50,782 nucleotides of DNA from an uncultured bacterium (GTDB lineage Bacteria; UBP6; UBA1177). Made by a program: the position numbers and the translations under genes. Positions 20,296 to 39,551 of the stretch are shown here, piece after piece. The notes beneath the pieces are model-generated. The model worked only from the letters and a program-made list of their open reading frames with translations, made no database searches and had not been told where the DNA came from. The stretch covers positions 1-50,782 of the forward strand of contig CAJOMF010000025.1 in assembly GCA_905235605.1 (NCBI GenBank). The letters are read 5' to 3'. Numbering within the stretch: position 1 is the first letter of the stretch; every line of letters starts with the position of its first letter.

Positions 20296-21474
20296 TTACT
20301 CCTCTTTTTTTATGACAAGGCACGCATTCGCGCCGCCGAAAGCGAACGAGTTCGAAAGACAAATTTTTGTTTGATATAAGTTATCGTTTTTATTAACGAA
20401 ATTGAGTTTTGGCATTTCGTCGTCGAAAACTCCGTCCCAGATCTGCGGCGGCAGTACATTGTTTGTGACCGCAGCAAAGCAGATCGCGAGCTCAAGCGCG
20501 CCGGCGGCTCCCAAAGTGTGGCCGGTAATCGGTTTTGTGGTGGAGCAGTGGACTTTGTAAGCTCCGAAAACGGCGTCAACTGCCTTTGCTTCCATCGAAT
20601 CGTTGAACTTTGTCCCGGTTCCGTGGAGATTGATGTAATCAACTTCTTCCGGCTTTATCTTCGCGTTTGAAAGTGCTTTCTCTATCGCTTTTTTTGCTCC
20701 AATTCCGCTCGGATCGGGGGAAGTCATGTGGTGTGCATCGCAGGATTCGCCGTAACCGAGAAGGCATATTTTGGGCATTGATTCGTCAAGCGGTTCTTTC
20801 GAAAGGACGAAAAACGCCGCGCCGTCACCCAAAGTTATGCCGGATCTATTTTTGCTGAAAGGGTTGGTGATCTTTTCAGATATTGCTTCCAAAGAGGCGA
20901 AACCGTCTAAAGTCGTGTCGGATGCGATGTCGATCCCGCCGGCAACAGCCGCGTCGCACGATCCCGATCTTATGAGTTCAGCAGCTTTTATTATCGCTCC
21001 TGCACTTGAAGAGCACGCCGTCGAAAAGGTGCATGCAGGGCCTTTGGGAGAGTATTTTTCGGCGATGAAAGTCGAAACATAGTCCGCGCCCTGCATTTCG
21101 ATCGAATAATCTTCAGGAAATGTGCCGTTTTCAAAGTATTTCCTGTGTCCCGCAAGGGAAAACTCTGTGCCGTTGTCGCACGATCCGACGCAGACCGCGA
21201 TCCTTTTTTCTCCGTATTTTGACTTTGCTTTTTCGATAATGCTGCCGATCTGGTCAAGTGCTGCCTCTTCGATCCTGATTATTTTCATATCGAATCTGCC
21301 GGATGAGGGGTTCAGCTTCGATTCATCGATTCTGGCTGCGAAAAATGTGCTTCCGGAGAATGTTTCATAGCGTTTTATTCCGCTCTGATCACCCGAAACA
21401 ATTGAAGTGTAAAGTTCTTCCAGATTTGATCCGGCAGATGACATTATTCCGGGTTTTGACAAGTATATTTTCAT
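20296..21474 (-). CDS. 3-oxoacyl-ACP synthase, ApeO-type ketosynthase
   Basis: 392 residues, FabB/FabF-type condensing enzyme. The catalytic triad is complete: Cys154 ('FSTACSSSAGA'), His284 ('NLHGTGTKFND') and His319 ('PITGHTLGAAGA'). The C-terminus has the family 'SNSFAFGGANACLV'. It condenses an acyl starter with malonyl-ACP. The N-terminus lacks the usual 'RVVVTG' opening and begins 'MKIYLSKPGIMSSAG', as in ketosynthases of aryl-polyene clusters (ApeO/COG0304 branch); the subfamily call is inference supported by the ACP, LolA and MMPL genes upstream on the same strand. A GGAGG lies 10 bases before the ATG and a promoter-like sequence at 21510-21537 drives it. Confidence 0.88.
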   Translation of the reverse strand: MKIYLSKPGIMSSAGSNLEELYTSIVSGDQSGIKRYETFSGSTFFAARIDESKLNPSSGRFDMKIIRIEEAALDQIGSIIEKAKSKYGEKRIAVCVGSCDNGTEFSLAGHRKYFENGTFPEDYSIEMQGADYVSTFIAEKYSPKGPACTFSTACSSSAGAIIKAAELIRSGSCDAAVAGGIDIASDTTLDGFASLEAISEKITNPFSKNRSGITLGDGAAFFVLSKEPLDESMPKICLLGYGESCDAHHMTSPDPSGIGAKKAIEKALSNAKIKPEEVDYINLHGTGTKFNDSMEAKAVDAVFGAYKVHCSTTKPITGHTLGAAGALELAICFAAVTNNVLPPQIWDGVFDDEMPKLNFVNKNDNLYQTKICLSNSFAFGGANACLVIKKEE

Positions 21475-21505
21475 ATAATCAAGACCTCCATCAAAAAGTC
21501 ACTTT

Positions 21506-21538
21506 GCGGACTATAGTGAAAAACGGACTAAAAACAAG
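21506..21538. repeat. Promoter-bearing 33-bp repeat, copy A
   Basis: Matches 22541-22573 at 25 of 33 positions in the same orientation, including the 13-base identical core TATAGTGAAAAAC. Together the copies flank the toxin-antitoxin pair. Confidence 0.7.
21510..21537 (-). promoter_or_regulatory. Putative promoter of the ketosynthase-phosphatase operon
   Basis: On the minus strand: -35 TTGTTT (21532-21537), 16-bp spacer, -10 TATAGT (21510-21515). It is embedded in repeat copy A. A start of transcription near 21503 would give a leader of about 30 bases. Confidence 0.5.
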
Positions 21539-21609
21539 TGGTTAGAACCCGCTTTTAGAATAGTTTTCTATGAAAAACAACTGCTTTACTTAAATATTCT
21601 AAAAGAAAT

Positions 21610-21637
21610 TTGAAAAATTTATATTCTTGCCTATAAT
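21610..21637 (+). promoter_or_regulatory. Putative promoter of the Panacea toxin-antitoxin operon
   Basis: -35 TTGAAA (21610-21615), 16-bp spacer, perfect -10 TATAAT (21632-21637). The ATG at 21667 has CAGGAGGTG 4 bases upstream. Confidence 0.65.
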
Positions 21638-21666
21638 ATTCGGGATGTTTATTGCAGGAGGTGAAA

Positions 21667-22146
21667 ATGACACGCATAATCGATGTCGCCGCTTACATAA
21701 TCAGGCAGTATAATGCCGTAACAGGCGAGATTCTTGATGAAATGAAGCTGCATAAACTGCTATATTTCACGCAGCGTGAAACCATTGCGGCTACGGGAGA
21801 ACCTGCATTTAATGAAGTTTTTGAAGGTTGGAAATATGGTCCTGTCAGCAGGGCTGTCCGCGATGTCTGTTTCGAAGGAAAAATTACTGTTCCGACAAAA
21901 GAAATTCCAGAAGAACTTAAATATATCGTCAATAATGTCGTTTTTGAATACGGTCTACTTGATTCGTGGAAACTCAGCGAACTTTCCCACAAAGATTCTT
22001 CATGGCAGAACGCAAGAAAAGGGCTCAATCCGGATGAAAACGGCGAAGTGCCTTTAAGTCTCTATGATATAAGAGCGGATGCGGCAAAGATCCGACCTTA
22101 CGATCATGTCTGGGATATGTATTACGGCGAATTCGACGAGGCTTGA
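21667..22146 (+). CDS. Panacea-domain (SocA/DUF4065) antitoxin
   Basis: 159 residues from the ATG at 21667; the AGGAGGTG upstream rules out the TTG at 21652. Family motifs: 'MKLHKLLYFTQRETIAATGE', 'FEGWKYGPVSRAV', and C-terminal 'LSHKDSSWQNARKG', all standard for Panacea/SocA (also annotated GepA). Proteins of this domain neutralise many unrelated toxins by direct binding. The TGA overlaps the TTG start of the next gene, so the two are coupled. The pair sits alone between two minus-strand operons. Confidence 0.88.
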   Translation: MTRIIDVAAYIIRQYNAVTGEILDEMKLHKLLYFTQRETIAATGEPAFNEVFEGWKYGPVSRAVRDVCFEGKITVPTKEIPEELKYIVNNVVFEYGLLDSWKLSELSHKDSSWQNARKGLNPDENGEVPLSLYDIRADAAKIRPYDHVWDMYYGEFDEA

Positions 22147-22535
22147 GTCAGTTGGTTTCAACAGGCAGAATATATAAAGCCATCGTTCAGTATTTTGACA
22201 GGATCGGAAACAAAATGGCTTTTAAGGCCAGACCTGTTTTGATTCTGGCTCATGCAGATGAGTTCGATTTCGTTGTTCTTCCGGTCTCGACGATTTCAAG
22301 AAAGGAAAATCTCAATAAATATTATGATGTTATGATTGATCCTGAGAAGTATCCGCTCTCAAATCTGATTAAAATTTCCTATGTCAGGACGCATAAGCAG
22401 ATCATTGTTCATGCTGCGGAAATTACTGATGAAATCTGTGATTTAAGGAAAAATTGTCTGCAGCTGTATTCGGAAATTCTTTTAAAAAGGGAAGAGTTCA
22501 GCCGCGAGATCACAAGACAGGCGGCTTTGGAATAA
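22143..22535 (+). CDS. PemK/MazF-like toxin
   Basis: 130 residues if translation begins at TTG 22143, which overlaps the antitoxin TGA; TTG 22152 is also possible, and the next ATG (22215) would remove the first strand. It reads like the MazF/PemK SH3-like fold: 'GRIYKAIVQYFD' at the start, 'KARPVLILAHADEFDFVVLPVSTI' (written here as two parts of the core: RPVLIL and VVLPVSTI), and 'LIKISYVRTHKQIIVH' where MazF has its S-x-v-r-T strand. A role as an mRNA interferase is inferred from fold and from its Panacea partner. The match is weak enough that another small-barrel toxin is possible. Confidence 0.68.
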   Translation: MSQLVSTGRIYKAIVQYFDRIGNKMAFKARPVLILAHADEFDFVVLPVSTISRKENLNKYYDVMIDPEKYPLSNLIKISYVRTHKQIIVHAAEITDEICDLRKNCLQLYSEILLKREEFSREITRQAALE

Positions 22536-22540
22536 TACTC

Positions 22541-22573
22541 GCGAGTTATAGTGAAAAACAACTTGAAAACAAG
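22541..22573 (-). promoter_or_regulatory. Promoter-like repeat, copy B
   Basis: Minus strand: -35 TTGTTT (22567-22572), 16-bp spacer, -10 TATAAC (22545-22550), aligned base for base with the ketosynthase promoter copy A. It follows the end of the large papain-like gene and points through the toxin-antitoxin genes (antisense) towards the ketosynthase. Confidence 0.4.
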
Positions 22574-22611
22574 AGAATGGAGTTTGAAATTAAGAATTTT
22601 ACCTGCTTGTT

Positions 22612-25600
22612 TCAGCTTTTACCACCCGTCATCGGAGCAATTATTCGTATTGTAACCGTCACATGTCGAATTGCAGGTCGCGGTTCCGCTGACAAACCCT
22701 GAATTTGTAGAGACGCAACGTCTAATTCCGTACAATCAATCTGACCTCCATCGCAGACTTCATCACCTTCGACTATGCCGTTTCCGCAAATTGCGGGAAC
22801 ATCGCTGCTCGTTGAGATCCAGATAGTGTTTTCGCCATAAAGATAGGTATATCCGTCGAAAGTATAGACATCCTGAAGCTCTCTGATATCACCCGAAAGC
22901 TCGGTGAAAGAGATGCCTCCGTCTCCGTCGTCTTCAAAGCGGTAGGTTTCGTCATCGCATGAAAGATAAAATCTGCCGTCAGAGCTTCCGACTTCTATCT
23001 CGAAGCATCCGAATAACTCGTTTGCTTTCAAAGTCAGATTTTCTGCATCACGGATCTCTACCGGAGAGAACAAAGCATCTTTGTAAAGTCCGATTTCGCC
23101 GTTTTCTATTGCAAAATCAAGCACTGAGCCGTTGTTTACCGAGGTAAGAACTGAAAGTGTTTCAAGGTCTCTGATTTTTATGCCGTTGTCTTCACCGACA
23201 TAAAGTTTGCCGTTGTAAACTTCTACTTTGTACTGAGAATTGAGAAATGTCGAAACGAACAAAGTTTGTGTAAGCGTGTCGTTTGAAGCGTCGAGTTTGT
23301 AAAGTCCGCTGTTTGTCGCTGCAAAAAGAGTATCGCCGTAAACTTCAAGATCGTTGACTCTGCTGTTTGTAGAGAAGGATGAAACAAGCTCAGGAGAGAT
23401 CGGATCGGAAATGTCGTAAATTTTTATCGCATTATTTGTTCCGACATAAAGCCTGTTGCCTTTTCCGTCCAGGCTGTAAACCGTTGCTCCGGCAGAGAAA
23501 GAGTTGTACCACTGGTGAGCGAACGGAACACATTCGCCGCTTGTTCCGATGCCGCCTTGAAGTGCGGTTCCAGTCTCTTTCAGGCAGTAATCACCGTATA
23601 ACGGATACTCATAATTCGAATTCGGTGTAGTCGAATAAGTAATCTCAATATTTTCAACAAGTTCTGTATTCTGGAACTCAAAAACAGGAAAGAACGGAGT
23701 TTCTTCGATCACTGGATTGAATGCGACCATTTTTCCGTCAACTTCCTGCATTATCACTTTGCGGAAATCGCCCTGCAGCGCATTCGTGACAAGTTGCCAT
23801 GTGTCTGTTTCGGAATCGAAACGCCACATATCTGTCAGAGCTGTATTGTTGAAGTCTGTTCCTCCTGCAAGGAACATATATTTTCCTGTTGTCGCAACAT
23901 TCAGGATATTTCTCTGCGGCGGCATTGTGCCTTGGATTTCCACAAAACTTGTACCATTGAAAGAATACATCTTGAAGTTAGTCGAACTCTGCTCGAGAAG
24001 ATAAAGTTTGCCGTTCAGATAAACGAGTTTTATCAGATCTCCGCTCACTGAAACTGCTCCCAAATCGGTCAGTGTGTAGGTAAGTTCCGGCAGTTCGTTC
24101 AAATTGTTGAGGACTTGCGGAACTTCGCCAACTGATTCGATTGCATAAAGGTGTTTTGTCTGGTCTCTTCTTTCAGCAATGAAAAAATTTGCGGCTACGG
24201 TTTTGACTAAACTCATTGAAACGATATTGTCATCCCAGTTTTCGATTCCTCCGAGTCTGTTCCAGTCTGCACCGCTTCTTGCTGTGTTCAGAACAAGGAA
24301 ATATTCATTCCCGTCTTTTACGACACCCAACATTTCAGCGGGTGTTGCTTCGCTGAATAAAACAAGATTTCCTAAAATTCGGAGTCTCTGGCTTTTAAGC
24401 ATGACATTGTCTCCAAAATCCTTACTGATTTCATATCTCGAAACATAATCATCGGGATAAATATCGTTCATTCCGATGAATTGGATCGGAATATCATAGT
24501 AGCACGATGCACAAAGCTCTACATTCGGCAACTCAACCGGCTCAGAAACCGGAGGAGTAATCATTTTTGTATGATAGTTTAGTTCCATCGGCTCGATGTT
24601 GTATCTTGCCGCACGGGCAAATTTGTTGGTGTTCGTCGGCGGGAAGTAAGCATCGTTGATGACAATATTGTTATCATTGTCATCATCGTTCGTTTCCAAG
24701 TTGTCAGAATCATCCATTTCCAATGCATCGGAATCTTCGGTTTCAGTGATTATGTATGATGGAATATCCTCCAGCTCAGTATTATCGTCTACTGGCAGAA
24801 TACTTGTCGAAAGTGCGTAATACATAGTATTTTCCACATCATAAGCCCCGCCGTTGATAAGGCTTCTACAAAGAGAAGTGTCTGGTATTTCCAAACATTT
24901 GCTTGATTCATACCAGTCTTTTCGCCAGTTCCATTTTGCTTGTACATTAGATGTATTTTTGACCTTGACTGGTTTTCTTGCCGCGTCATTGTTTGGATCA
25001 CCTTCACTGCTTCCGGTATTTCTCAGAAGCCAAGGATCGGGTTCTGGAACCAAGGAAGAAAGATTTAAATCACTCGAGGTTTCAACAATTGAGATTCTTT
25101 TTTGCCAGCTTCTTATTGATTCTTGGCCGAAATCATCGCTTCCATGACTATAACCGAAATTTTTATTTGATATAAAAGAGCCTCCTTCTTTTTCCGAAGT
25201 TGAGCAATATCCTTGCGTCCCCCAATTGTTACGTTCCATATCTATGTGATCTATTGCACAATAATGCACAGCAGCATTGCACTCGCTTCCACGATAAACC
25301 GCATCGTTTGAATTACCTGTATCAGTAATCATTATATCATCTGTGCAATATGCCAATTTTCTGCCGCTCATTACAGGCATCGTTAATTCGACTGTTGCAT
25401 ATTTGTTAAATTCTCTTCTTAAAGGTGTCGTAGGAGAAATGGACATTTGCCAGTCATCGCCTTTGGTGTTTGTGATTTTACTGTTTGCAAAACCTTGATG
25501 CCACAATGATAACGGAAAATAATCGCACATATCACCTCTTCCGTCCAAGTCGCTGTCTGGCTGCATTCTATAAACATATTTCATCGGAATTATTATCGGA

Positions 25601-27879
25601 TTCGGTTGAATAATATTGTTTCTGTTTATATTTACAGAAATAGGCAATATGTTGAAAATCGGAACCCTGAAAAGATTTCCCATATTTTTTGCTATAGCAC
25701 CTTTGTGGTTCGGATCGTTTGAAGTAGCAAGTATAAATTCACTGTCCAATTTATAATCCACATAAGGATTGTAATAATTCAGGCAATTGTCGCAAAGATT
25801 ACCGACTCCGTCTTCGTCATCGTCTTTCTGATCAGAATTTGCGATATTCGGGCAGTTATCGTATTCGTTCCTGACTCCGTCACAGTCTATATCAATCCCT
25901 GTTCCCTGCGAACACTGATAAGCATTTTCACATGCAGTTTTACAGTCCTGCAAGTCAACTACATTATTGATATTATTGTTGTTGTTCAATTCTTCCGTAT
26001 ACAGTTCAGACAGTTTTTTACAATGAAGCATACAGTTATAAAAACTCTCAGGATAATTTTCACCATAATTACTATTGATATATTGTTGAGGGTCAACATC
26101 AGACATCTCAAACAAACCGGGAACATTCCACCTCAGACCATATAAAGTTCCCCATTCACCGTTACTTTTGTAACTGAATTTACGTATGTAAGTTTCGGTT
26201 TCTTTTTGGGGCAAATACCAGTCATGATAATAAACTTTATTGTTAATAAATTGAAATTTCGGTGGATTTTCCTCAATGTTATTAAACGGCAATAAGTAGA
26301 AATCGATACTCGAAATGTAGTTTTTACCCAATTTAATAATGTTTCTGTTTGCAAAATTCTCTGACACGAAATATTTGTTGACAACTTTTCCTGTAGAACC
26401 GTCTAAAAACGGATTCAATGCCGCATATTCATCAACGGTTAAACTAGTCAACTGGTAGAGATATTCTTGGCTTAATCCTTCCGCAATATTGCTTATTCCA
26501 TCGCCATCAATGTCTTCATCACAATAATCTCCGATACCATCCATATCCATATCTGCTTTCGGGATATCTAAAATATAAGGACAAAAATCTTTTTCCATGG
26601 AAACATTGTCATTATCTGCTTCATTCTGAGTCGGATTGTAAGAGACATTTGAGGAATTATATATTCCAGAATAGACATTGTTGTCGAAAATATCAGGAAT
26701 ATTGTCATTATCGATATCTCTATTAGCAACAGAGTCTGATGATAAAATATTTTCGCCAAGATAAACCTTAATATCTCCAAAAGTGTTATATGTAAGAGGG
26801 TTACAGTAAGTTTCGAAATCACTGTCTATCGGAAACAGTTCAAGAATATTCTCGTCATCATAGCTGTTTTTGATTATAAAATAATCTGGGCTATCTGTAT
26901 GAGATTCAATATAACCCACAATGATAACAGCATGCCCTGTATGTTTCATGCCGGTATTGTTACGGTTCTGCAGAAAAACAAGTTTTTTAAATTTTCCCAT
27001 ATTTATATCAACATAAGGTGTCGTTCTTATGGAACACGAGGATCTGTAAGACATTATGACCGGGTCTCCGCTTCTAATATATTCTTTCACCTTTTCGATT
27101 TTGCTTTCATGAGTTCCAGATATGGTATCCATATTTTCTGGGGAAAATAAAAGAAATGAATTGGAAATTCTTTTGTTCCACAAATTTATATTGTAATAGA
27201 TTTCATTTTTGTCTTCACATTCTCTATATTGGAAATTTCCATAGCGTTGGATATCCCTATTTGAATAATGCTCCACGTCTCCAAAATGCACTTGATTATA
27301 TGGATAATGTTCTTCCTGAATAACGCCTCGGTCAACAAGTCTTTCTGCAACAATAACAGTATCGTTCCAACAACCGGCTATTTCTCTGGCATAGGCCTCC
27401 GACAGATTGGCTTCTACAGTTTCAGGATCTCCGCCACTGCTAATTACATTCTCTTTAGCTGTTTGAAAAACATTGACATACTGCTTCGCAAGTTTGATTT
27501 CCATGGCACCAGTTGTTGCGAATCTTGTACATTCCCCCAAAGAGCCTTGATTTTTTATACTTGAGACCAAATCATGTATTCTTCCGTTATCATCTCTATA
27601 ATGAGTCAGGGAATAAACCGTAAAAGGTATCGGATTCGTCGGTTGAATAATTGCCTGAAACGGAACAACCTTAAGCTCAGAGAAATTGATATTAGCTACA
27701 CTTCCTTGAAGAGTATCTAAAATTTCATTTCTTGCCTGCATTTCAGCCATTATTTCCGCCGAGATACAACCAGATTCTTTTTCCTCATTATTACAGGAAG
27801 AACTGCCTGCCAAGCAGATCTCGGCATAAGTAACAGAAAAAAAGCAAATTAAAACAATTAAAATCATAATTTTTTTCAT
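22612..27879 (-). CDS. Giant secreted papain-like protease with thrombospondin-3, propeller and Myxococcus cysteine repeats
   Basis: 1,755 residues from the ATG at 27879 (GGAGG 5 bases upstream; ATGs at 27882 and 27891 overlap the ribosome site). A signal peptide ('MKKIMILIVLICFFSVTYA') is followed by a C1A cysteine-protease domain: Gln111-x5-Cys117 ('KNQGSLGECTRFATTGAMEI'), His316 ('HTGHAVIIVGY') and Asn338 ('FIIKNSYDD'), with correct papain spacing although GSCW is GECT. Then come Ca2+-binding thrombospondin type 3 repeats ('DMDMDGIGDYCDEDIDGDG', 'DCDGVRNEYDNCPN', 'DDDEDGVGNLCDNC'), a Kelch/LVIVD-like propeller from ~1,250 ('AIKIYDISDPISPELVSSF'), and a final 'CGNGIVEGDEVCDGG' repeat. The end is frameshifted (see finding). 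It is the last gene of the lipoprotein operon, 16 bp after the 519-residue lipoprotein. An extracellular or surface protease or adhesin is inferred. Confidence 0.85.
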   Translation of the reverse strand: MKKIMILIVLICFFSVTYAEICLAGSSSCNNEEKESGCISAEIMAEMQARNEILDTLQGSVANINFSELKVVPFQAIIQPTNPIPFTVYSLTHYRDDNGRIHDLVSSIKNQGSLGECTRFATTGAMEIKLAKQYVNVFQTAKENVISSGGDPETVEANLSEAYAREIAGCWNDTVIVAERLVDRGVIQEEHYPYNQVHFGDVEHYSNRDIQRYGNFQYRECEDKNEIYYNINLWNKRISNSFLLFSPENMDTISGTHESKIEKVKEYIRSGDPVIMSYRSSCSIRTTPYVDINMGKFKKLVFLQNRNNTGMKHTGHAVIIVGYIESHTDSPDYFIIKNSYDDENILELFPIDSDFETYCNPLTYNTFGDIKVYLGENILSSDSVANRDIDNDNIPDIFDNNVYSGIYNSSNVSYNPTQNEADNDNVSMEKDFCPYILDIPKADMDMDGIGDYCDEDIDGDGISNIAEGLSQEYLYQLTSLTVDEYAALNPFLDGSTGKVVNKYFVSENFANRNIIKLGKNYISSIDFYLLPFNNIEENPPKFQFINNKVYYHDWYLPQKETETYIRKFSYKSNGEWGTLYGLRWNVPGLFEMSDVDPQQYINSNYGENYPESFYNCMLHCKKLSELYTEELNNNNNINNVVDLQDCKTACENAYQCSQGTGIDIDCDGVRNEYDNCPNIANSDQKDDDEDGVGNLCDNCLNYYNPYVDYKLDSEFILATSNDPNHKGAIAKNMGNLFRVPIFNILPISVNINRNNIIQPNPIIIPMKYVYRMQPDSDLDGRGDMCDYFPLSLWHQGFANSKITNTKGDDWQMSISPTTPLRREFNKYATVELTMPVMSGRKLAYCTDDIMITDTGNSNDAVYRGSECNAAVHYCAIDHIDMERNNWGTQGYCSTSEKEGGSFISNKNFGYSHGSDDFGQESIRSWQKRISIVETSSDLNLSSLVPEPDPWLLRNTGSSEGDPNNDAARKPVKVKNTSNVQAKWNWRKDWYESSKCLEIPDTSLCRSLINGGAYDVENTMYYALSTSILPVDDNTELEDIPSYIITETEDSDALEMDDSDNLETNDDDNDNNIVINDAYFPPTNTNKFARAARYNIEPMELNYHTKMITPPVSEPVELPNVELCASCYYDIPIQFIGMNDIYPDDYVSRYEISKDFGDNVMLKSQRLRILGNLVLFSEATPAEMLGVVKDGNEYFLVLNTARSGADWNRLGGIENWDDNIVSMSLVKTVAANFFIAERRDQTKHLYAIESVGEVPQVLNNLNELPELTYTLTDLGAVSVSGDLIKLVYLNGKLYLLEQSSTNFKMYSFNGTSFVEIQGTMPPQRNILNVATTGKYMFLAGGTDFNNTALTDMWRFDSETDTWQLVTNALQGDFRKVIMQEVDGKMVAFNPVIEETPFFPVFEFQNTELVENIEITYSTTPNSNYEYPLYGDYCLKETGTALQGGIGTSGECVPFAHQWYNSFSAGATVYSLDGKGNRLYVGTNNAIKIYDISDPISPELVSSFSTNSRVNDLEVYGDTLFAATNSGLYKLDASNDTLTQTLFVSTFLNSQYKVEVYNGKLYVGEDNGIKIRDLETLSVLTSVNNGSVLDFAIENGEIGLYKDALFSPVEIRDAENLTLKANELFGCFEIEVGSSDGRFYLSCDDETYRFEDDGDGGISFTELSGDIRELQDVYTFDGYTYLYGENTIWISTSSDVPAICGNGIVEGDEVCDGGQIDCTELDVASLQIQGLSAEPRPAIRHVTVTIRIIAPMTGGKS

Positions 27880-27895
27880 CATAGCCTCCATAAAA

Positions 27896-29455
27896 TTATT
27901 GTTCTAACGGGCAAATGCCTTCTTCTTTGCAGTAACATTCCCAGTCACGCATTATTGCATGAATACTTGTTGTTATTTTCCACAAATGCCATTTTCCCCA
28001 AAAAACATTGAATCCCATTAAATCTGAACTATGGGTGACGAATGTTGAATCAGCAGGACAGTATGTTTTCTGTTTGTCAAAACGGTAGAAACAGCCTACG
28101 TCATCATTGGAATCAGATTCAATATAAACCGTCTTATTTCCAATCAGCATACTTGGGCCAAACCATGCGGCTTTTGGTCTGCTTTTTTCTACTTTGTATT
28201 CTGTGTATTTAGGATTGTTCAAATCTTTTAAATCAACTTCGACAAATGTCGGTGTTTCATAGACATTATAAACAATGCGGTATTCGTTTTCCAAGTCGAT
28301 TCTCGGGCTGTGTCCAAGTTCTTCATTCCCTGATTCATCTTTGCGGTTAAGTTTGAAACACTCGTCAATGTGTTTAGGATATTTACGCAAATCACAGTAG
28401 TAAAGTTCACGGTTATTTGTGATAAAAGTCAGATGGTCTCCGACAATGTTGCCTTCTCCTGCATAGTTGTTGATCCCGGCGAGTTCATGCCATTCCCAGT
28501 CTTTGGATGAGGCATAGACTGTTTTTTTGCCTGTCAGGCGCAATAGAACCCAATTCTTTCCTGCAAAGGGAGGGCTATAAAATTCATCTTTTTCTCCATG
28601 ATTGTCTCGGATAAACTCATAAAAATAGCCGTTTTCTGTCCGCAATATCGAAACAGTGAAAGTTTTATATGTGTTTATATTATCACCAGGAACCCGGTCA
28701 TAAATTTCAGCAACATACCTTCCTTCATTGAAAGCTAACTTGCGATCCTGTCCCAAAGTCATGTATTCGTCTTTTTCAGGGTCATATTCTACAATTCGTC
28801 CGCTGTGCATAAAATCTATTCCGGCAACTCCGTCGGACATTCCATGTGACCAGACCGTTCCTGATGTTACTTTAAAATTGTTCACAGTCAGTAATCTGTC
28901 ACAGCTGCTGATAAAAGTGTTCAAAGTTTCTTTTGTTTTTGCGTGCATGTCAGGCAACTTGCATGGCCACGGGTAGCACTCACGTTCTTTCTGCTGATTC
29001 GGATCTTCTTTTTGCGCTTTGAGATAGACTTGATACTCGTCCCAGTTGTCCCATTCCCAAATGTTGCGGACACACTGAGGATCGTTTTCAGTCGGAGTGT
29101 CGCAGCCGGGACGGCAGAAAGTCGGCTTGCCGTTTGCATCTTTGAAGGGAAACGGTGTTTTGATCGTGTTTTCGTTGTAACGCAGATCAAGACACTCAAC
29201 AGTTTCAGGCGTGTCGGAATCAGCATCAGCATCCGGCTTCGCATCCGAATCATCAACAAGATCAGCATCTTTGTCTGCGTCTTCATCAACTGTTTCAGAA
29301 TCCTGCGTGTCTGCATCGTCGTCTTGAGTCTCAATTTCGTCTGAATCAAGATCTGCATCCGGCAGAATATCGGAATCATTCTGAGATTTTGACGAAGAGC
29401 AGGAAAAAACCAGAAAAACTAATAAAACAACCAATAAATTCAAAACTTTTTTCAT
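27896..29455 (-). CDS. Asp-rich lipoprotein with conserved cysteine domain, copy 2
   Basis: 519 residues. Lipobox 'FLVFSC' gives lipid-modified Cys19. An acidic linker of Asp/Ser/Glu repeats (~25-85) leads into a Cys- and Trp-rich domain of unknown function: 'FCRPGCDTPTENDPQCVRNI', 'ECYPWPCKLPDMHAKTK', 'KDWEWHELAGINNYAGEGN', 'FWGKWHLWK' and 'RDWECYCKEEGICPLEQ', where it ends. The middle repeats of aromatic-rich strands suggest a beta-propeller. It is clearly homologous, at high DNA identity over long stretches, to the broken gene upstream, so the pair arose by tandem duplication. It lacks the extra ~185-residue C-terminal domain of that copy. I do not recognise the family; the surface location is safe, the function unknown. 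Confidence 0.85.
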   Translation of the reverse strand: MKKVLNLLVVLLVFLVFSCSSSKSQNDSDILPDADLDSDEIETQDDDADTQDSETVDEDADKDADLVDDSDAKPDADADSDTPETVECLDLRYNENTIKTPFPFKDANGKPTFCRPGCDTPTENDPQCVRNIWEWDNWDEYQVYLKAQKEDPNQQKERECYPWPCKLPDMHAKTKETLNTFISSCDRLLTVNNFKVTSGTVWSHGMSDGVAGIDFMHSGRIVEYDPEKDEYMTLGQDRKLAFNEGRYVAEIYDRVPGDNINTYKTFTVSILRTENGYFYEFIRDNHGEKDEFYSPPFAGKNWVLLRLTGKKTVYASSKDWEWHELAGINNYAGEGNIVGDHLTFITNNRELYYCDLRKYPKHIDECFKLNRKDESGNEELGHSPRIDLENEYRIVYNVYETPTFVEVDLKDLNNPKYTEYKVEKSRPKAAWFGPSMLIGNKTVYIESDSNDDVGCFYRFDKQKTYCPADSTFVTHSSDLMGFNVFWGKWHLWKITTSIHAIMRDWECYCKEEGICPLEQ

Positions 29456-29465
29456 TCGTGTCTCC

Positions 29466-31613
29466 TTATTTATTTTCCTTAACTTCTATCCTCGGTCGCC
29501 CTCTCAGGCTCGATCCGAATTTTTCGCGCAACTCTCTGATAACTTTGGCAAAGTTGCCGTTCGCTTCGTAGAATCTGTCTCTGAAAAATATGCCGTCACG
29601 CGCTCTGCCGTGGTCGATCACCGTCGCAAACATCACGCTGTCGCTGTCAAATGTCGAAGTTTCTTCATCGTATTCGCAGACAAAACTTTCGTGGATGTCG
29701 CAAGCGTGGAATTTGTTCCATATCTTTTCATGGTTTGCTACCAAATTGGCAAAGCTTTTTTCGGTTTTCCACTGTCTTTTGGATGAAAGAATCAAATCTT
29801 TAAGCTGTGTTTCGCTTTTATCCAACGATTTTAAATAGTTATTGACTTGTGCAGCTGTCGGGCAGTAGCCGTGATTTCCGAATTGTCCGAGTTCCCTCTC
29901 CGTGATGGTACAGAAATAAACTCCGTTTCCGTCAAATTTAGGCAGAACTTTTTCCTCTTCGATTTTTGCCAGAATTTCGGCAGTTGTTTTTGATGCCTGA
30001 GGTGCAAGCGGTAGTTTGCGGTTAAGTTCCTCTTCTGTCGCAGGTTCTAACGGACAAACATTGTTTTCCTTGCAGTAACATTCCCAGTCACGCATTATAG
30101 CATCTGTGGCTGCCGTTTCTTTCCACAAGTGCCATTTTCCCCAAAAAACATTGTAACCCATTATGCTATCAGGTAGTGTTGAAGTTGTTCTCTCTACAGG
30201 GCAGTATGTTTTTTTCTTGTCAAAACGATAAAAACAGCCGTTCTCATCTATCGCGCCATTTGATAATATGAAAAAATCACTATACGAAATGCGATTTCCC
30301 TTCAGCATGTCTATTTCCTAATCCCAACTATTTTCAGATTTCTTTTCTATAATGTATTCGGTATATTTCGGACTTTCCAAGTCTTTCAAGTTGACTTCAA
30401 CAAATGTCGGTTTTCCATAAACATTGTAAACTACATGGAATTCGTTTTCCAAATCAATCCTCGGACTGTGACCAAGTTCTTCATTGCCTGTTTCATCCTT
30501 GCGGTTCAATTTGAAACATTCGTCAATGTGTTTCGGATAACTGCGCAAATCACAATAATAAAGTTCACGGTTATTTGTGATAAAAGTCATATGATCGCCG
30601 ACGATATTGCCTTCTCCGGCGTAGTTGTTGATTCCGGCGAGTTCATGCCATTCCCAGTCTTTTGAGGATGCGTATTTTATAACTGTTTCCGAACTTTGTT
30701 TGCCTTCTCTGACATGAATCAAAACCCAGTTTCTGCCGGCAAGTGCCGGTCTTGACAAAAAGGAGTTGTGATTTTTATTATCATAAATCAATTCATAATA
30801 ATATTCCCCATTTTTACGCAAAACAGAAATTAGAAATGATTTGAAATTTGCATTATTAGGCGGATCTGAATCATGAATTAATGTAACATAGCGGTTTTCG
30901 TTAAATGCCAAACTGGTTTTGTTGTGACCTACCGTGGTGTATTCATCTTTTTCAGGATCATACTCAACGATTCTTCCTGTGTGAGAGAAATCCATTCCGG
31001 CAACTCCGTCGGACATGCCATGAGTCCATACTGTCCCCATACTTGCCGTAAATCCGTTAACTGTCAGCAATCGGTCGCAACTGCTAACAAAAGTATTGAG
31101 TTCCGCTTTTGTTTTTGCATGCATATCCGGCAATTTACACGGCCACGGATAGCATTCACGCTCTTTTGTCTGATTCGGGTCTTTTTTCTGCGCTTCCAAA
31201 TAGACTTGATACTCTTCCCAGTTGTCCCATTCCCAGATATTGCGGACACACTGCGGGTCGTTTTCAGTCGGTGTGTCACAACCCGGGCGGCAGAAAGTCG
31301 GTTTGCCGTTCGCATCTTTGAACGGGAAAGGAGTTTTGATAGTGTTTTCATTGTAGCGAAGATCGAGGCATTCAACATCTTCGTCTGAATCGGCATCAGG
31401 AACAGTATCCGCATCCTGATCAGGTTTTTCATCAGAATCATCAACGATTTCACCGTCTTGAGCGTCTGAATCATCGTCAACGGTTTCAGAATCCTGCGTG
31501 TCTGCGTCGGCATCAGGAATCATGTCGGAATCGTTGGAAGAATTGGAGGAGGAGCAGGAAACCAAGAAAAGCAACCCTAAAATAACTAAAAATGGTTTTA
31601 AATGGAGCGGCAT
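29466..31613 (-). pseudogene. Asp-rich lipoprotein, copy 1, interrupted by an in-frame TAG
   Basis: Start at 31613 (AGGAGG 5 bases upstream), lipobox LVS-Cys20, acidic linker, then the same domain as copy 2. After 431 codons the frame meets TAG at 30320-30318 following 'KKSENSW-D'. The same frame continues without shift and soon rejoins copy 2 homology ('GCFYRFDKKKTYCPVE', 'FWGKWHLWKE', 'RDWECYCKENNVCPLEP'). It then adds a C-terminal domain absent from copy 2 ('FDGNGVYFCTITERELGQFG', 'HACDIHESFVCEYDEETSTF'), ending at 29466. An internal ATG at 30308 could restart translation. TAG ends other genes here (6732, 42128, 44066), so recoding is unlikely and a nonsense mutation is preferred. Full length would be 716 codons including the TAG. 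Confidence 0.8.
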
Positions 31614-31652
31614 TCGAACCTCCTGAGAATGATTATGTAAAAACAACGAAGA

Positions 31653-31680
31653 ATTATATTTTTTGTTGAAAAACTGTCAA
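31653..31680 (-). promoter_or_regulatory. Near-consensus sigma-70 promoter of the lipoprotein-protease operon
   Basis: Minus strand: perfect -35 TTGACA (31675-31680), 16-bp spacer, perfect -10 TATAAT (31653-31658). It is the strongest promoter seen in the window and lies between the MMPL gene stop and the lipoprotein start. Confidence 0.75.
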
Positions 31681-31702
31681 GAAATAGTCTTGGAAGTTAT
31701 CT

Positions 31703-34066
31703 TTATTTTTTATCTCCCGAAGTGTAGAAAAGTGCGGCTAAGTATGCGGCGCAAAGCCCTGTAAATATTGAGAAACCTATTAAATGAACGGGCTGAAAGG
31801 AACTGAGTGCGAGCGCGCCGAATGATACGATCGTTGTAAAAAATGAGAGGAAGATAGCGAAAGGTTCGAGCCTTTTTTCAACAGGGTCTTTGGTTTTTTC
31901 GTTTTCCTGTGTGTAAATTATGTAGTCGAGACCGAGCCCGAAAACCAGAATTATGCCGGTGACCGAGAAAAATTCGGGTCTGGTATTCGTCGCGGCAAAA
32001 ACAGCCGATGTCGCAAGAATGACGATGAAGGGGATCGAGATTATTTTGAGCGACTGCCGCGTGTTGTAGAAGAATCTGAGGACGATGAACATGAGTATAT
32101 ATGCGGCTAAGAAGAATTCGAGGACGATAGTCGTCACTTTGTCGAGGTCTGAATTTATGTCTTCGACTTTGTGGACGAAATAGACACCTTCGTTTCCTTC
32201 GACGATACTTCTGAAAACTTTTGTTTCAGCCATAAAGTTCGGGATAACTATTGAATAATATTTGTCTTTAACTTTGCCTAACCAGTAAGAGGAGAGAGCT
32301 TCTTTTATTGAGGAAGGGAAGTCGTCTGAGGTGACTGAAAGCATTGTTTTTTCAGCTTCTCTGAAGGTGTTTTTGAAGTTTTCGGCTTCGTTTCCGTCAA
32401 ATTCCAGTGTTTCGAACTGCTTTTCGGTAAAAGGAAGGAGCTTTTCGACTGCCGAGCGCGATTTTTTCTGCTTTTCGACTGACGGGATGAATACGGATGT
32501 TGACATTACGCCGTCGCCGTTTTTATCAATGGTTTTAAGCCTTTCGCGCAATTCTTCTTCTTTTTTGAGGACCTCGTTCTCGTCGCGGCCGCTCACTATG
32601 AACCAGTTTACCGGAGCGTAGGAGATGACGGAGTAAGCCTCTTTTTCGTTTTCAAGAAGCTCGCCCTCTTCTTTGTAGAGTTTTTTGATGTCGTTCTCTA
32701 TCCCGAAATTCTCTTTGAAAGCGAAAAGCAGGATGAGGGAAAGTGCAACCATTGCGCATATTGCCGCTTTTCCGTTGATTTTTTTTGCAAAGGCAAACCC
32801 TTTTTCAAAAAGTCCGACTCCTCTGACGACTCTGTTTTTGGGAAGCGGAACATACGGAAATATTGCGGTCGTCGTGAGAAATGAGCTTACGAGCCCTGTG
32901 ACTGAAAAGAGCGACATCTGCTTGAGAAGATTGAACGGCGCGAAAATGAGGGCTAAAAAGCAGACTGATGATGAGATTATCGCCATTGTGAGCCCTGGAA
33001 GGAGCTTCGATCTGATCTCTCCGCCCGATTTCAGATTGGTGTTTCCCGAGGCGTGGACGAAGTAGTGAAGGCTGTAGTCGATGGAGGAGCCTATGAGCGA
33101 AGTCCCGAAAACAAGCGTCACAAGATGAACTTTCCCGAAGACTGCGAAAGTAAGTGCCGCAGCTGAGAAAAGCGAAAAGAATATAGAGAGGAGAGAAAGT
33201 ATTATCGGGGTTGCCGAGCGGAAGACGAAGAGGAGCATCAAAATGACGATAGTTATTGAAATTATTGATATTATTTTGATTTCTTCCGATGCTGAATTCG
33301 AGCTTTTGTGGCTGTGGAAAGTGCCGCCCGAAACGACGCAGCGCGTCCCCGTTTCAGCCTTTATTTTTCCGCATATATCGTAAATTTCGGTTATTCCGTT
33401 GTCTTTTGAGGCGAGTGCCGCGCCTTCAGGCGAAAGTTCCGTTTTTATCATGACATACCAGAGACCGTTTTTTTCTGCCGCGAGAACGCCGTCCTTCGGC
33501 CTTAAAGCGGTACCGGAATGTTCCAAAACTTCCAGATATTTCTGGAGGTTATGCTCGGCAAGCATAAAAGGGTCGCTTCCTATGTTGTCGAGCGGAAGCA
33601 TCGTGAAGGGGCTGTATATTCTGGAGACCGCTTCCTGCGCAAAGTCTTCGGCTCCGCCGTTTTCAATCGCTTTTATAGTCTCGTCGTCAAGCAGATCAAA
33701 GCGGTATTTGTGGAAGAAACCGGCTATTTCTCTGATATCGACAGTGTCGGTATTCAGTAGGACCGAAACGAAGTAGGGGCTTTTGGAGAGTTTTTCATAT
33801 ATCCTTTCGGCTCCGGCCTTCGCCTTTTCGAAATCTTTGTCTGCGCTGAGGACGATCGCCGCTTTGCTCAGTTTTTTCATCAGTGTTTCATTCGCTTTTT
33901 TCAGCGATTCCTCTTCGAAAGGCTTCGGCATCATATTCAAAAGGTCTGAATCCAATGAAAATTTTTCACTTCCGTAATTATAGGAGATCACTAAAAAAAC
34001 GGCGGCTCCGATGTGAAAAATGAGCCAGAAAAGAAGGAAAGCGCGGTTAGTCTTTTTTGAATTCAT
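31703..34066 (-). CDS. MMPL/RND-family exporter, ApeM-type
   Basis: 787 residues with the two-fold RND layout: one N-terminal TM helix ('FLLFWLIFHIGAAVFLVISY'), a periplasmic loop, five to six TM helices (~265-420, with 'FGTSLIGSSIDYSLHYFVHA' holding the conserved G-x-x-x-D-Y motif), another helix at ~440, a second loop, and a final TM group (~660-785, with 'VFGLGLDYIIYTQEN', again G-x-x-x-D-Y). This is the proton-driven hydrophobe-exporter architecture. Together with the overlapping LolA-like gene (20 bp) it matches the ApeL-ApeM pair, proposed to move aryl-polyene lipid towards the outer membrane. The Shine-Dalgarno AGGAG lies within lolA. Confidence 0.9.
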   Translation of the reverse strand: MNSKKTNRAFLLFWLIFHIGAAVFLVISYNYGSEKFSLDSDLLNMMPKPFEEESLKKANETLMKKLSKAAIVLSADKDFEKAKAGAERIYEKLSKSPYFVSVLLNTDTVDIREIAGFFHKYRFDLLDDETIKAIENGGAEDFAQEAVSRIYSPFTMLPLDNIGSDPFMLAEHNLQKYLEVLEHSGTALRPKDGVLAAEKNGLWYVMIKTELSPEGAALASKDNGITEIYDICGKIKAETGTRCVVSGGTFHSHKSSNSASEEIKIISIISITIVILMLLFVFRSATPIILSLLSIFFSLFSAAALTFAVFGKVHLVTLVFGTSLIGSSIDYSLHYFVHASGNTNLKSGGEIRSKLLPGLTMAIISSSVCFLALIFAPFNLLKQMSLFSVTGLVSSFLTTTAIFPYVPLPKNRVVRGVGLFEKGFAFAKKINGKAAICAMVALSLILLFAFKENFGIENDIKKLYKEEGELLENEKEAYSVISYAPVNWFIVSGRDENEVLKKEEELRERLKTIDKNGDGVMSTSVFIPSVEKQKKSRSAVEKLLPFTEKQFETLEFDGNEAENFKNTFREAEKTMLSVTSDDFPSSIKEALSSYWLGKVKDKYYSIVIPNFMAETKVFRSIVEGNEGVYFVHKVEDINSDLDKVTTIVLEFFLAAYILMFIVLRFFYNTRQSLKIISIPFIVILATSAVFAATNTRPEFFSVTGIILVFGLGLDYIIYTQENEKTKDPVEKRLEPFAIFLSFFTTIVSFGALALSSFQPVHLIGFSIFTGLCAAYLAALFYTSGDKK

Positions 34067-35037: not shown

Positions 35038-36210
35038 TCAACTATAGTTAAAAGAAAAAGTCTTTTTATTTTTCAGCATCGAAAAGACACACCTTAAAAA
35101 CTTATTGAAAACAGCAATTACGGCCTTTTTCCCATTCATGTTCTCTCGTATTTTTTTGTCGTAATATTCCTTAAAAACCTTGTTCATACTGATTAAATGT
35201 AGTGCTGTCAGGAAACCGATCCTACGCACTGATGAGTTGCCTCTTTTGGAGATTCTTTTCTGAACCAGGGAGTTGCCGGACTGGCTTATTCCCGGATCAG
35301 TTCCGGCATAAGCGGTCAGTTGTTTCACTGTTTCAAAGCGGTTGATGTCGCCTATTTCCGCGATGAACTGTGCGGCAGTAAGTTTGCCGATTCCGGGAAT
35401 ACTTGTAAGAATTTCAAAGTCCTCGTGTGAATAAACGCTGACGGCTTCAATGAGTTCCTTGTCACACTTCTTAAGTTCGTCGGTAAGGAAGTTGAGCTCC
35501 CTGATTATATGTAGAACCGTTTTCTCAAGCATGGGCTTGCAAACACCGACGGATTTTGCCGCAAGTGCCTTGATTTGTTCGGCATTCAGTTTTGGATTCC
35601 GTCCTTTTGTTTTTGAATTAAGGACTTTTTCGATCTTTTTAAGACTTGCCTTGCGTATTGCTTCGGCAGAGGGGAACTCTTCAAGCAAAGTAATCATTGA
35701 AACGGTAAAAATATCGTGTTCTTTTACCAGTTCAGGGAATGTTGTTGTCACCAGCTGTTTCAGTCTGATTTTGGCGGCAACACTCTTCTTGGAAATGCTT
35801 TCCCTGAGTCGTGCGATTTCTCTCAGACCGTTACTGTCCGAAGCTGATACAGGGCGAAGTCCGGCGTAATTTTTCCCTAGAAAAACAGATATTATTCTGG
35901 CATCTATCGTATCGGTTTTGGTGTTCCTGAGCGAGCATGACCGGGCAAAATTCTTGACCAGAAACGGAGTGATCAGATAAGTCGGAATATCTCTAGCCAA
36001 AAGAGCAAAAAGCAGCGGCTGATGGTATGTCGCAGTGGATTCAAGACCAACGGAGGCATTTTCAAACCTGCTGATAACATTAAAGAAATTCTTGAAACCT
36101 TCGTGATTCATGCCACACGAGCCTTTTTCCAAAGTTTTCTCTCTTAAATCTGTGACATTGAACGAAAAGGAATCCTTCGAGACATCGACACCGACAAAAT
36201 GTTCAAACAT
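35038..36210 (-). CDS. IS110-family DEDD transposase/recombinase
   Basis: 390 residues from the ATG at 36210 (GAGGT upstream; the ATG at 36225 has no ribosome site). The N-terminal DEDD RuvC-like domain starts 'MFEHFVGVDVSKDSFSF' with Asp at 'VDVSKD', then 'VGLESTATYHQPLLFALL' and 'NTKTDTIDARIISVFL' for the other acidic residues. The C-terminal transposase_20 domain has 'LTSIPGIGKLTAAQFIAEIG', 'YAGTDPGISQSGNS' and 'RISKRGNSSVRRIGF' with the catalytic Ser. Both halves appear intact, so the element may be active. Bridge-RNA-guided recombination is established for IS110 members. Confidence 0.95.
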   Translation of the reverse strand: MFEHFVGVDVSKDSFSFNVTDLREKTLEKGSCGMNHEGFKNFFNVISRFENASVGLESTATYHQPLLFALLARDIPTYLITPFLVKNFARSCSLRNTKTDTIDARIISVFLGKNYAGLRPVSASDSNGLREIARLRESISKKSVAAKIRLKQLVTTTFPELVKEHDIFTVSMITLLEEFPSAEAIRKASLKKIEKVLNSKTKGRNPKLNAEQIKALAAKSVGVCKPMLEKTVLHIIRELNFLTDELKKCDKELIEAVSVYSHEDFEILTSIPGIGKLTAAQFIAEIGDINRFETVKQLTAYAGTDPGISQSGNSLVQKRISKRGNSSVRRIGFLTALHLISMNKVFKEYYDKKIRENMNGKKAVIAVFNKFLRCVFSMLKNKKTFSFNYS

Positions 36211-36225
36211 TTCTTTACCTCGCAA

Positions 36226-36440
36226 GACAAAGTACTAAAATAAACCCGCTTCGAGACAGACATGTCTCCCGTCCCAATCTCCATAATCACAGGAGTTTAG
36301 CTCAATCAACTAATTGGGGCTCAGGAGACAGAGAGCAGACTACGCGAGAGGTTCAAAGACCTGGAGACGCCAAGGCTCTTCTGTCCCGGAGCATTTCTTG
36401 TGAAAATTAACAAGGAACTTCTTGCAAACAAAGAAATATT
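36226..36440 (-). ncRNA. Candidate bridge RNA region of the IS110 element
   Basis: Non-coding leader upstream of the transposase, where IS110-group elements encode the bridge RNA. It contains a GAGACA-GACA-TGTCTC stem-loop at 36253-36268 and several further GAGAC(A/G) repeats. The target and donor loops were not identified; the call rests mainly on position. Confidence 0.3.
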
Positions 36441-36458
36441 ACTCATTTATCGGTAGGA

Positions 36459-36481
36459 GAGACGTCATAGCATGGCGTCTC
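36459..36481. other. 23-nt hairpin at the outer side of the IS leader
   Basis: GAGACG-T-CAT / ATG-G-CGTCTC with loop AGC. Pairing is complete on the plus strand with one U-G pair. It may mark the IS end or belong to its RNA. Confidence 0.5.
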
Positions 36482-36569
36482 AATGTTGTTGTGTCTCAGA
36501 TTCTCTGTGACCTCCCGCATCGTTTCTTCAATGAGTGCCGCTTTCAACTGGACCTCTCAGCTTTCAGCA

Positions 36570-36590
36570 GCTCCCCTACGGCAGGGGAGC
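36570..36590. other. Strong hairpin downstream of the DUF2075 gene
   Basis: GCTCCCCT (36570-36577), loop ACGGC, AGGGGAGC (36583-36590). It lies 70 bp after the minus-strand DUF2075 stop. No T-run follows on either strand, so rho-independent termination is doubtful. The rest of 36226-36661 holds only short open frames. Confidence 0.55.
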
Positions 36591-36653
36591 CAAGATAAGG
36601 TATGATTTCCAAGCCCAGATCACGATCACGTTCCAGCCGGCTTCCCGCAGAAT
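36576..36653 (-). pseudogene. Vsr-like C-terminal remnant
   Basis: A minus-strand frame reads 'NHRILREAGWNVIVIWAWKS' before a TAG at 36578-36576. The 'LREAGWxVxVIW' block is the C-terminal signature of very-short-patch-repair (Vsr) and DUF559-type endonucleases. No upstream part is present; the DUF2075 gene end overlaps where it would be. It may be a scrap left by gene turnover. Confidence 0.3.
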
Positions 36654-36661
36654 GCGGTGAT

Positions 36662-38719: not shown

Positions 38720-38793
38720 TGTGATAATCCTCAAAAAAACGCGAAAAGGTATTTGCAATTTGCAAAAAATGCAAATTAGTCGGCTTTTCCCTA

Positions 38794-38847
38794 ACTATGT
38801 TCCAAAACGGAACGAACTGAAGAAGCGCTTTTGTGCGGGGCGGGGAA
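38794..38847. repeat. Dispersed intergenic repeat, copy 1
   Basis: 54 bp starting ACTATGTTCCAAAACGGAAC, with the small stem GTTCC-AAAAC-GGAAC, then a GC-rich end. It is followed at 38853-38872 by CTTCGACAGGCTCAGCAACC. Nearly identical to 39289-39341 and related to 40737-40799. Confidence 0.85.
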
Positions 38848-38883
38848 GTGTTGCTTCGACAGGCTCAGCAACCGTTGTCTTAT

Positions 38884-38980
38884 CTATTTTCCTTGATACT
38901 CGTTCCAGATTTCTTCAGCCAGATATTTATCGCTGCGGCAATGAAGATCGGCGACACCTTCTTCAATAAGGTTCGCAGTT
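38884..38980 (-). pseudogene. Short coding remnant beside the DUF3791 gene
   Basis: The minus-strand frame ending in TAG at 38886-38884 reads 'FETANLIEEGVADLHCRSDK' and 'YLAEEIWNEYQGK', which looks like a real protein end, but has no start codon and is in a different frame from the neighbouring DUF3791 gene. It may be the tail of a partner gene whose front was deleted. Confidence 0.3.
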
Positions 38981-39193
38981 TCAAAGCACTCCTTTTTCTT
39001 TCATGTAGTCGGTCAGATCTTCCATCAGATAGCGAGAACTGAATGTGTGAAGGACATCATAAGATGGAACGATGTAATCATATAATATTCCTGAATTTTT
39101 TAGCTTCACATAGACGTCATGCTGTGAAAGATTCAGTATTGCTGAAAGTTTAACGATGCAGTAAGTAACGAATTCCAGTGTTTTTTTATCCAT
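38981..39193 (-). CDS. DUF3791 small protein
   Basis: 70 residues. It resembles DUF3791: 'FVTYCIVKLSAILNLSQHDV', 'LYDYIVPSYDVLHTFSSRYL' and 'EDLTDYMKEKGVL'. DUF3791 genes usually stand next to a DUF3990 (ADP-ribosyltransferase-like) gene as a suspected toxin-antitoxin unit. No DUF3990 gene is present here, only a short remnant downstream, so this could be an orphan antitoxin. GGAG lies 7 bases before the ATG. Confidence 0.7.
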   Translation of the reverse strand: MDKKTLEFVTYCIVKLSAILNLSQHDVYVKLKNSGILYDYIVPSYDVLHTFSSRYLMEDLTDYMKEKGVL

Positions 39194-39288
39194 AATACAA
39201 CTCCAAAAAACGCAAAATTTTATTTATAACTGCTGAAAAATCAACAAATTTTAGGCTTTTGATTGGTGACACAAGACATTCTTCCTTC

Positions 39289-39341
39289 ACTATGTTCCAA
39301 AACGGAACGAACTGAAGATCGCTTTTGTGCGGGGCGGGGAA
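39289..39341. repeat. Dispersed intergenic repeat, copy 2
   Basis: Identical to copy 1 except for GATCGC in place of GAAGCGC. It lacks the CTTCGACAGGCTCAG extension. Confidence 0.85.
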
Positions 39342-39344
39342 CTA

Positions 39345-39423: not shown

Positions 39424-39472
39424 CTTAAGTATGCAATTATAAAAAATCGAATTAGTCTTTACAATATTTTTC

Positions 39473-39500: not shown

Positions 39501-39551
39501 ATTTTAGTTTTCGTTGTTTTGTAATAGAAAACGATTTTTTGTGAGGGAAAA

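What the first reader, a model, noticed from the sequence alone, without database searches (positions are those of the whole stretch)
27896..31613. Tandem lipoprotein duplication with one copy split by an in-frame TAG
Copy 1 is interrupted after 431 codons by TAG at 30318-30320, but homology to copy 2 resumes in the same frame, and copy 1 alone retains a ~185-residue C-terminal domain. The pattern suggests a recent nonsense mutation, a restart at 30308 giving two polypeptides, or (less likely) readthrough.
Basis: seen in the sequence. Interest (0 to 1): 0.5.

Follow-up and report, generated by a model that had tools for sequence, protein, structure and literature searches.

The report
Broken copy of shuffled lipoprotein gene
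One of several related surface-lipoprotein genes in an uncultured gut bacterium carries a single stop codon that very probably just inactivates it, but the gene family it belongs to is unusual because its members appear to have swapped segments with one another.

Summary
Copy 1 (29466-31613, minus strand) carries one in-frame TAG at 30318-30320, after 431 codons, and homology to copy 2 resumes in the same frame. It is best explained as a single-base nonsense change: the closest relative found has TGG there, as do 15 of 46 other rows, and none has a stop. The frame after it is otherwise intact and looks constrained (dN/dS 0.13 and 0.19 against the closest rows). The genome has release factors 1 and 2, no PylS above cut-off, and no CUA-anticodon tRNA among 37 found. 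A restart at 30308 is possible but its product would lack a signal peptide. Copy 1 is most likely a recent pseudogene, or an assembly or strain variant.

'Tandem duplication' is misleading. The genome, of a UBP6-type lineage, holds at least nine close copies, and copy 1 is much closer to a gene in another species than to copy 2. Members are mosaics: a recombination test is strongly positive, and one locus shared by two genomes shows a replaced 3' part. The ~10.2 kb block holding both copies lies between two genes that abut in 11 of 12 relatives. The stop codon is ordinary; the mosaic family is moderately interesting.

The parts
29466..31613 (-). Copy 1: long-form lipoprotein gene (715 codons with one in-frame stop), probably a pseudogene
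30318..30320 (-). In-frame TAG (codon 432). Aligned codon is TGG in the closest relative found, L071, and in 15 of 46 other rows; CAG in 2; a stop in none
29466..30308 (-). Possible restart product (280 aa, ATG 30308 = codon 436; AGGA 7 nt upstream; no signal peptide seen)
29469..30035 (-). Extra C-terminal domain of the long form (189 aa); 6 of 31 genomes, one genus; no confident fold (pLDDT 43 for 29469-30068)
31653..31680 (-). Sigma-70-like promoter pattern TTGACA-N16-TATAAT upstream of copy 1; the same string stands before relative L075
27896..29455 (-). Copy 2: short-form lipoprotein (519 aa), uninterrupted; signal peptide with lipobox-like SCSSS, acidic linker, predicted beta-propeller-like domain
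22612..27891 (-). Large protein with papain-like C1 peptidase, TSP3 and Kelch hits, 4 bases after copy 2; a homologue directly follows the lipoprotein in three other distinct loci (L005; L026=L075; L029=L073)
21475..31702 (.). About 10.2 kb block between KAS and MMPL genes; the two genes abut in 11 of 12 relatives that have the MMPL orthologue, and the twelfth has another lipoprotein after MMPL
31703..34066 (-). MMPL-family protein, on the upstream side of the block
20296..21474 (-). Beta-ketoacyl synthase (KAS), on the downstream side of the block
21652..22535 (+). SocA/Panacea antitoxin-like gene plus a PemK-like gene (the latter below Pfam's cut-off), inside the block

Best explanation
Copy 1 is a long-form member of a multi-copy family of predicted beta-propeller-like lipoproteins in a UBP6-type, probably ruminant-gut bacterium. 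A single-base change, most simply TGG to TAG, recently stopped it at codon 432. The expected product is a fragment with the signal peptide but without the last strands of the propeller and without the C-terminal domain, so it is most likely non-functional. Copy 2 is a separate, uninterrupted family member, not a recent duplicate of copy 1. Shown here: the stop, the codon in relatives, the otherwise open and constrained downstream frame, the mosaic pattern of the family, and the block between the MMPL and KAS genes. Inferred: loss of function, recency, and homologous recombination as the shuffling mechanism.
For: Aligned codon TGG in 15 of 46 other rows including the closest relative found (L071), CAG in 2, a stop in none. 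Copy 1 is 91.6% identical to L071 before and 94.5% after the stop. dN/dS after the stop: 0.13 against L071 (91 codons) and 0.19 against L069 over the last 192 codons; four pairs of uninterrupted long forms give 0.10-0.19 over that last region. Five relatives have the long form in one open frame of 711-728 aa. RF1 and RF2 present. PylS hit 22.6 bits against a cut-off of 178. No CUA anticodon among 37 tRNAs. 4 of the 34 other window ORFs listed end in TAG. Other copies carry unrelated lesions: C24, C87, C9 in this genome, L074 (G014:C12) and L096 (G010:C74) in relatives.
Against: No reads could be examined, so mutation, strain variant and consensus error cannot be told apart. The TAG also forms part of an AGGA 7 nt before ATG 30308, so the 3' part could be translated. 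No Ser or Ile tRNA was found, so the tRNA list is incomplete. The position varies in the wider family, so the ancestral codon rests mainly on the nearest relatives. dN/dS for copy 1 after the stop ranges from 0.07 to 0.33 over all pairs that gave an estimate, dS is often near saturation, and recombination blurs it.
Confidence: 0.77

Rival explanations
1. The TAG is a consensus error or a strain variant of a draft (probably metagenome-assembled) genome, and the gene is intact in most cells.
For: 136-contig draft. Several contigs end inside members of this family, and three contig pairs share exact 99-nt stretches reaching a contig end (C86/C87, C24/C64, C46/C54), so assembly is hard here. The TAG is the only interruption in 715 codons and the downstream frame looks constrained.
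Against: Longest exact match of copies 1 and 2 is 31 nt, and no other sampled copy shares more than 50 nt exactly with window 22001-32000, so a chimera at the TAG is unlikely. Single-base consensus errors are uncommon (general knowledge).
Confidence: 0.14
2. Termination-reinitiation makes two working polypeptides from copy 1.
For: AGGA 7 nt upstream of ATG 30308; stop 9 nt before that ATG.
Against: The second product lacks a signal peptide although the family has many invariant cysteines. The split falls inside the predicted propeller. None of 46 other rows has a stop at this column.
Confidence: 0.05
3. The TAG is read through (pyrrolysine, suppressor tRNA or leaky termination).
For: The frame stays open and looks constrained after the TAG.
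Against: RF1 present, no PylS above cut-off, no CUA anticodon among 37 tRNAs, 4 of 34 other window ORFs end in TAG, no stop at this column in 46 other rows. Leaky termination was not tested.
Confidence: 0.02
4. Copy 1 is dead as a gene but serves as a donor of variable segments for other copies by gene conversion, as silent copies do in known antigenic-variation systems. This adds to the best explanation rather than excluding it.
For: Members are mosaics of recurring segment types between conserved blocks. Five further copies with different lesions were seen.
Against: Many copies have an own start codon and an open frame, so there is no sign of one expression site with silent cassettes. No segment of copy 1 was seen donated within this genome.
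Confidence: 0.15

Closest known systems
Ordinary bacterial pseudogenes by nonsense mutation
   Same: One stop in an otherwise intact frame; relatives' codon one base away; downstream constraint still visible.
   Different: The gene is one of at least nine close copies in a recombining family, so loss of one copy may be cheap (inference).
Segmental gene-conversion families such as vlsE of Borrelia and msp2 of Anaplasma (passages of the review PMC4534519 seen)
   Same: Conserved blocks alternate with variable blocks; segment types recur in different combinations; some copies are broken.
   Different: No single expression site seen; many copies have their own start and open frame; like segments are found in different species and the signal-peptide module also precedes LRR proteins; no link to host immunity is known.
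Beta-propeller proteins such as BamB and WD40 domains (Foldseek)
   Same: Predicted propeller-like fold; BamB is also a lipoprotein (recalled).
   Different: Identity 6-14% in the 50 rows listed, TM-score by query length 0.17-0.42, and no Pfam family for copy 2.

Membership tests
Recoded or read-through TAG genes | Suppressor tRNA or PylS in the genome | tested here: not met
   PylS 22.6 bits, cut-off 178; no CUA anticodon among 37 tRNAs, but no Ser or Ile tRNA found, so the list is incomplete
Recoded or read-through TAG genes | Stop conserved at the position in relatives | tested here: not met
   0 of 46 other rows have a stop at the column
Pseudogene by nonsense mutation | Orthologues or paralogues with a sense codon at the position | tested here: met
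   long form in one open frame in five relatives
Pseudogene by nonsense mutation | No functional product | not testable with these tools
   needs proteomics or genetics
Gene-conversion variation system (vlsE or msp2 type) | Mosaic copies with exchanged segments | tested here: met
   Home-made PHI-type test, 19 sequences, 639 sites, z -26.2/-26.7/-19.9, 0 of 1000 permutations each; locus pair L065/L072 with different 3' part
Gene-conversion variation system (vlsE or msp2 type) | One expression site plus silent promoterless cassettes | tested here: inconclusive
   Speaks against: promoter-like pattern upstream of 7 of 17 starts examined, SD-like motif before most (starts were chosen by best SD), full open frames in many loci. 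No expression data
Bacterial lipoprotein | Signal peptide followed by a lipobox cysteine | tested here: met
   Judged by eye from the translations; no predictor was run
Beta-propeller | Ring of four-stranded blades | tested here: inconclusive
   AlphaFold model of copy 2, mean pLDDT 82.4, mostly strands; Foldseek top rows include BamB, WD40 and a 7-bladed propeller-like protein; blades were not counted

The most novel reading that the evidence does not exclude
UBP6-type gut bacteria carry a dispersed, mobile repertoire of surface lipoproteins in which promoter, signal peptide with linker, propeller segments and tail are modules traded by recombination within and between species, even between propeller and LRR proteins; broken copies such as copy 1 are kept as donors of variable segments.
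Probability: 0.2. Interest if true: 0.65.

Novelty: new member of a known kind. Interest (0 to 1): 0.3.

Why it matters
The stop codon itself matters little. The family could matter: extensive segment shuffling of surface lipoproteins is best known from pathogens under immune pressure (recalled; review passages). Here it appears in uncultured gut bacteria, where phage, competitors or substrates might be the driver. It also warns that such families break draft assemblies and should be checked with long reads.

Tried and rejected
Readthrough by pyrrolysine or a suppressor tRNA was tested and not supported. A compensating frameshift near the TAG was rejected: the same frame continues on both sides and L071 aligns without gaps there (the row is L027). 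L072 first looked like a copy interrupted by an insertion; it proved to be an LRR lipoprotein gene beside an uninterrupted propeller gene and is not counted as broken. The tail domain gave no usable fold (pLDDT 43), only sub-cut-off Pfam hits (DUF6241 and a Plavaka model) and two weak uncharacterised PHROG hits. NCBIfam gave nothing above cut-off. None of the proteins of the 10.2 kb block gave a transposase or recombinase hit above cut-off, and a scan of 21300-31900 for repeats of 18 nt or more showed no inverted repeats at its two ends; shorter ones were not sought.

Literature: searches for UBP6 with rumen (8 papers), UBP6 with lipoprotein (16 papers, 10 listed, those listed about ubiquitin proteases) and 'candidate phylum UBP6' (1 paper) show nothing on this family in their listings, which is all I saw of them. 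A search on gene conversion and antigenic variation led to one review, of which I saw 12 passages (PMC4534519).

Rows left out: four partial copies from the PHI-type test; L074 from the tail alignment; G005 and G010 from the MMPL-KAS count because they lack the MMPL orthologue. L119 (G012) was not among the 11 junctions printed; it was examined.

Full report
What is there. The window is contig C25 of a 2.67 Mb, 136-contig draft genome. Family loci in named records come largely from ruminant-gut assemblies, some labelled UBP6 and others from sediment or digester-type samples by their titles. Contig lengths tie three UBP6-labelled records (UBA1196, UBA1209, UBA1177) to genomes of the window's own genus. 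That the window itself is from a ruminant gut is inference. Copy 1 starts at ATG 31613 behind an AGGAGG and runs 431 codons to a TAG at 30318-30320; the same frame goes on to a TAA at 29466-29468. Copy 2 (27896-29455) is uninterrupted, and a large protein with a C1-peptidase hit starts 4 bases after it.

The stop codon. At the aligned column 15 of 46 other rows have TGG, 2 have CAG, the rest have various sense codons and none has a stop. The closest relative found, L071, has TGG and is 91.6% identical before and 94.5% identical after the stop. The simplest reading is one TGG-to-TAG change. After the stop dN/dS is 0.13 against L071 (91 codons) and, over the last 192 codons, 0.19 against L069; four pairs of uninterrupted long forms give 0.10, 0.12, 0.11 and 0.19 over that last region. 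Over all pairs with an estimate, copy 1 gives 0.07-0.33 after the stop. These are simple Nei-Gojobori values with dS often near saturation and with recombination in the family, so they are rough. They suggest that the frame was under constraint until recently.

Recoding is not supported. Two release-factor genes are present; the domain fragments given to NCBIfam score best as RF1 and RF2, under the cut-offs for the full length. PylS gives 22.6 bits against a cut-off of 178; 13 of 14 control genomes also ring, one of them over the cut-off. ARAGORN on loci covering all 37 tRNA matches shows no CUA anticodon, but no Ser or Ile tRNA either, so the set is incomplete. Of the 34 other ORFs listed, four end in TAG; not all of these are certain genes.

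Restart. ATG 30308 is codon 436; it lies 9 nt after the stop with AGGA 7 nt upstream, so reinitiation is possible. The product would have no signal peptide. The stop column corresponds to residue 432 of copy 2, where the model still has seven strands from residue 431 on. Neither fragment would hold the whole predicted domain.

The family. Copy 2 finds 30 matches in the genome; at least nine different close copies can be told apart (C25 twice, C86, C73, C24, C64, C9, C46, C54), several cut by contig ends. Of 31 genomes searched, own included, 25 have matches. The tail is found in 6 of 31, all one genus. In this genome C24, C9 and the tail fragment C87 carry frameshifts; in relatives L074 (G014:C12) has two TAA codons and L096 (G010:C74) a frameshift. 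So broken copies recur, with unrelated lesions; many other copies are uninterrupted. Three contig pairs share exact 99-nt stretches: the end of C86 and the start of C87, the end of C64 and an inner stretch of C24, and the ends of C46 and C54. This points to repeats that broke the assembly.

Mosaic structure. In 19 aligned members, blocks with mean pairwise identity 0.85-0.97 (columns 99-138 and 339-418) alternate with blocks at 0.49-0.66 (columns 259-338 and 439-478). Segment types recur in different combinations. A home-made PHI-type test on 639 sites gave z of -26.2, -26.7 and -19.9 for three window sizes, with 0 of 1000 permutations reaching the observed value in each. L065 and L072 share three flanking genes at 87-90% protein identity. 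Their lipoprotein genes are 93-100% identical in all eleven 60-nt windows of columns 99-318, mixed (77-92%) over 319-418, and 65-73% over 419-538; there L065 instead matches L069, from another genome, at 87-100%. C86 and C73 of this genome are 88-98% identical over columns 419-518 but 58-65% over 199-338.

Not a simple tandem duplication. Copy 1's first 90 nt match L075 at 77/90 and the lipoprotein behind MMPL in G012 at 74/90, but copy 2 at only 54/87; copy 2's first 90 nt match an LRR lipoprotein of its own genome (L015) at 72/90. LRR domains were confirmed for L015, L020 and L072; the G012 protein is cut by its contig end and is called LRR-like by its likeness to L020. Copy 1's promoter-like string is identical to that before L075, and the end of copy 2 also matches L075 best (92%).

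The site. Twelve relatives of the genus have the MMPL orthologue. In 11 the KAS start abuts the MMPL end. In the twelfth, G012, the sequence after MMPL holds the LRR-like lipoprotein. In this window about 10.2 kb lie between them: both lipoproteins, the peptidase-like gene and an antitoxin/toxin-like pair. Whether the block came in here or was lost elsewhere is not settled. Among 63 family loci compared, many with short flanks, only 14 pairs share a flanking gene at the threshold used, so most copies seem to sit at different places.

Function. No Pfam family was found for copy 2, and at E 0.01 only 1 of 37 aligned members hits any. The model is mostly strands (mean pLDDT 82.4), and top Foldseek rows include BamB, WD40 domains and a 7-bladed propeller-like protein, at low TM-scores. 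I infer an exported lipoprotein that displays a propeller. A C1-peptidase-like homologue directly follows the lipoprotein in three other distinct loci. What it binds is unknown.

Verdict. The TAG is an ordinary inactivating change in one member of a redundant family, or an assembly or strain variant. The family's modular shuffling is the part worth following.

Noticed in passing
window 21475-31702: About 10.2 kb between MMPL and KAS genes that abut in 11 of 12 relatives; the twelfth (G012, L119) has an LRR-like lipoprotein after MMPL.
   Followed up: partly
window 21512-21538 and 22547-22573: 27-nt direct repeats (81%) flank a SocA/Panacea-like plus PemK-like gene pair.
   Followed up: no
L065 and L072: Same genomic locus in two genomes by shared flanking genes, but the 3' part of the lipoprotein gene is of a different segment type.
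   Followed up: partly
L015, L020, L072, L119: Leucine-rich-repeat lipoproteins share the type of signal peptide and acidic linker of the propeller lipoproteins.
   Followed up: partly
window 8131-17683: Type I restriction-modification genes (M, S and R subunit hits) with neighbouring ORFs.
   Followed up: no
window 35038-40693: IS110-type transposase, Schlafen-group-3-type helicase and YhcG-type nuclease genes close together.
   Followed up: no
G000 contigs C86/C87, C24/C64, C46/C54: Exact 99-nt shared stretches reaching contig ends inside family members, pointing to repeat-broken assembly.
   Followed up: partly
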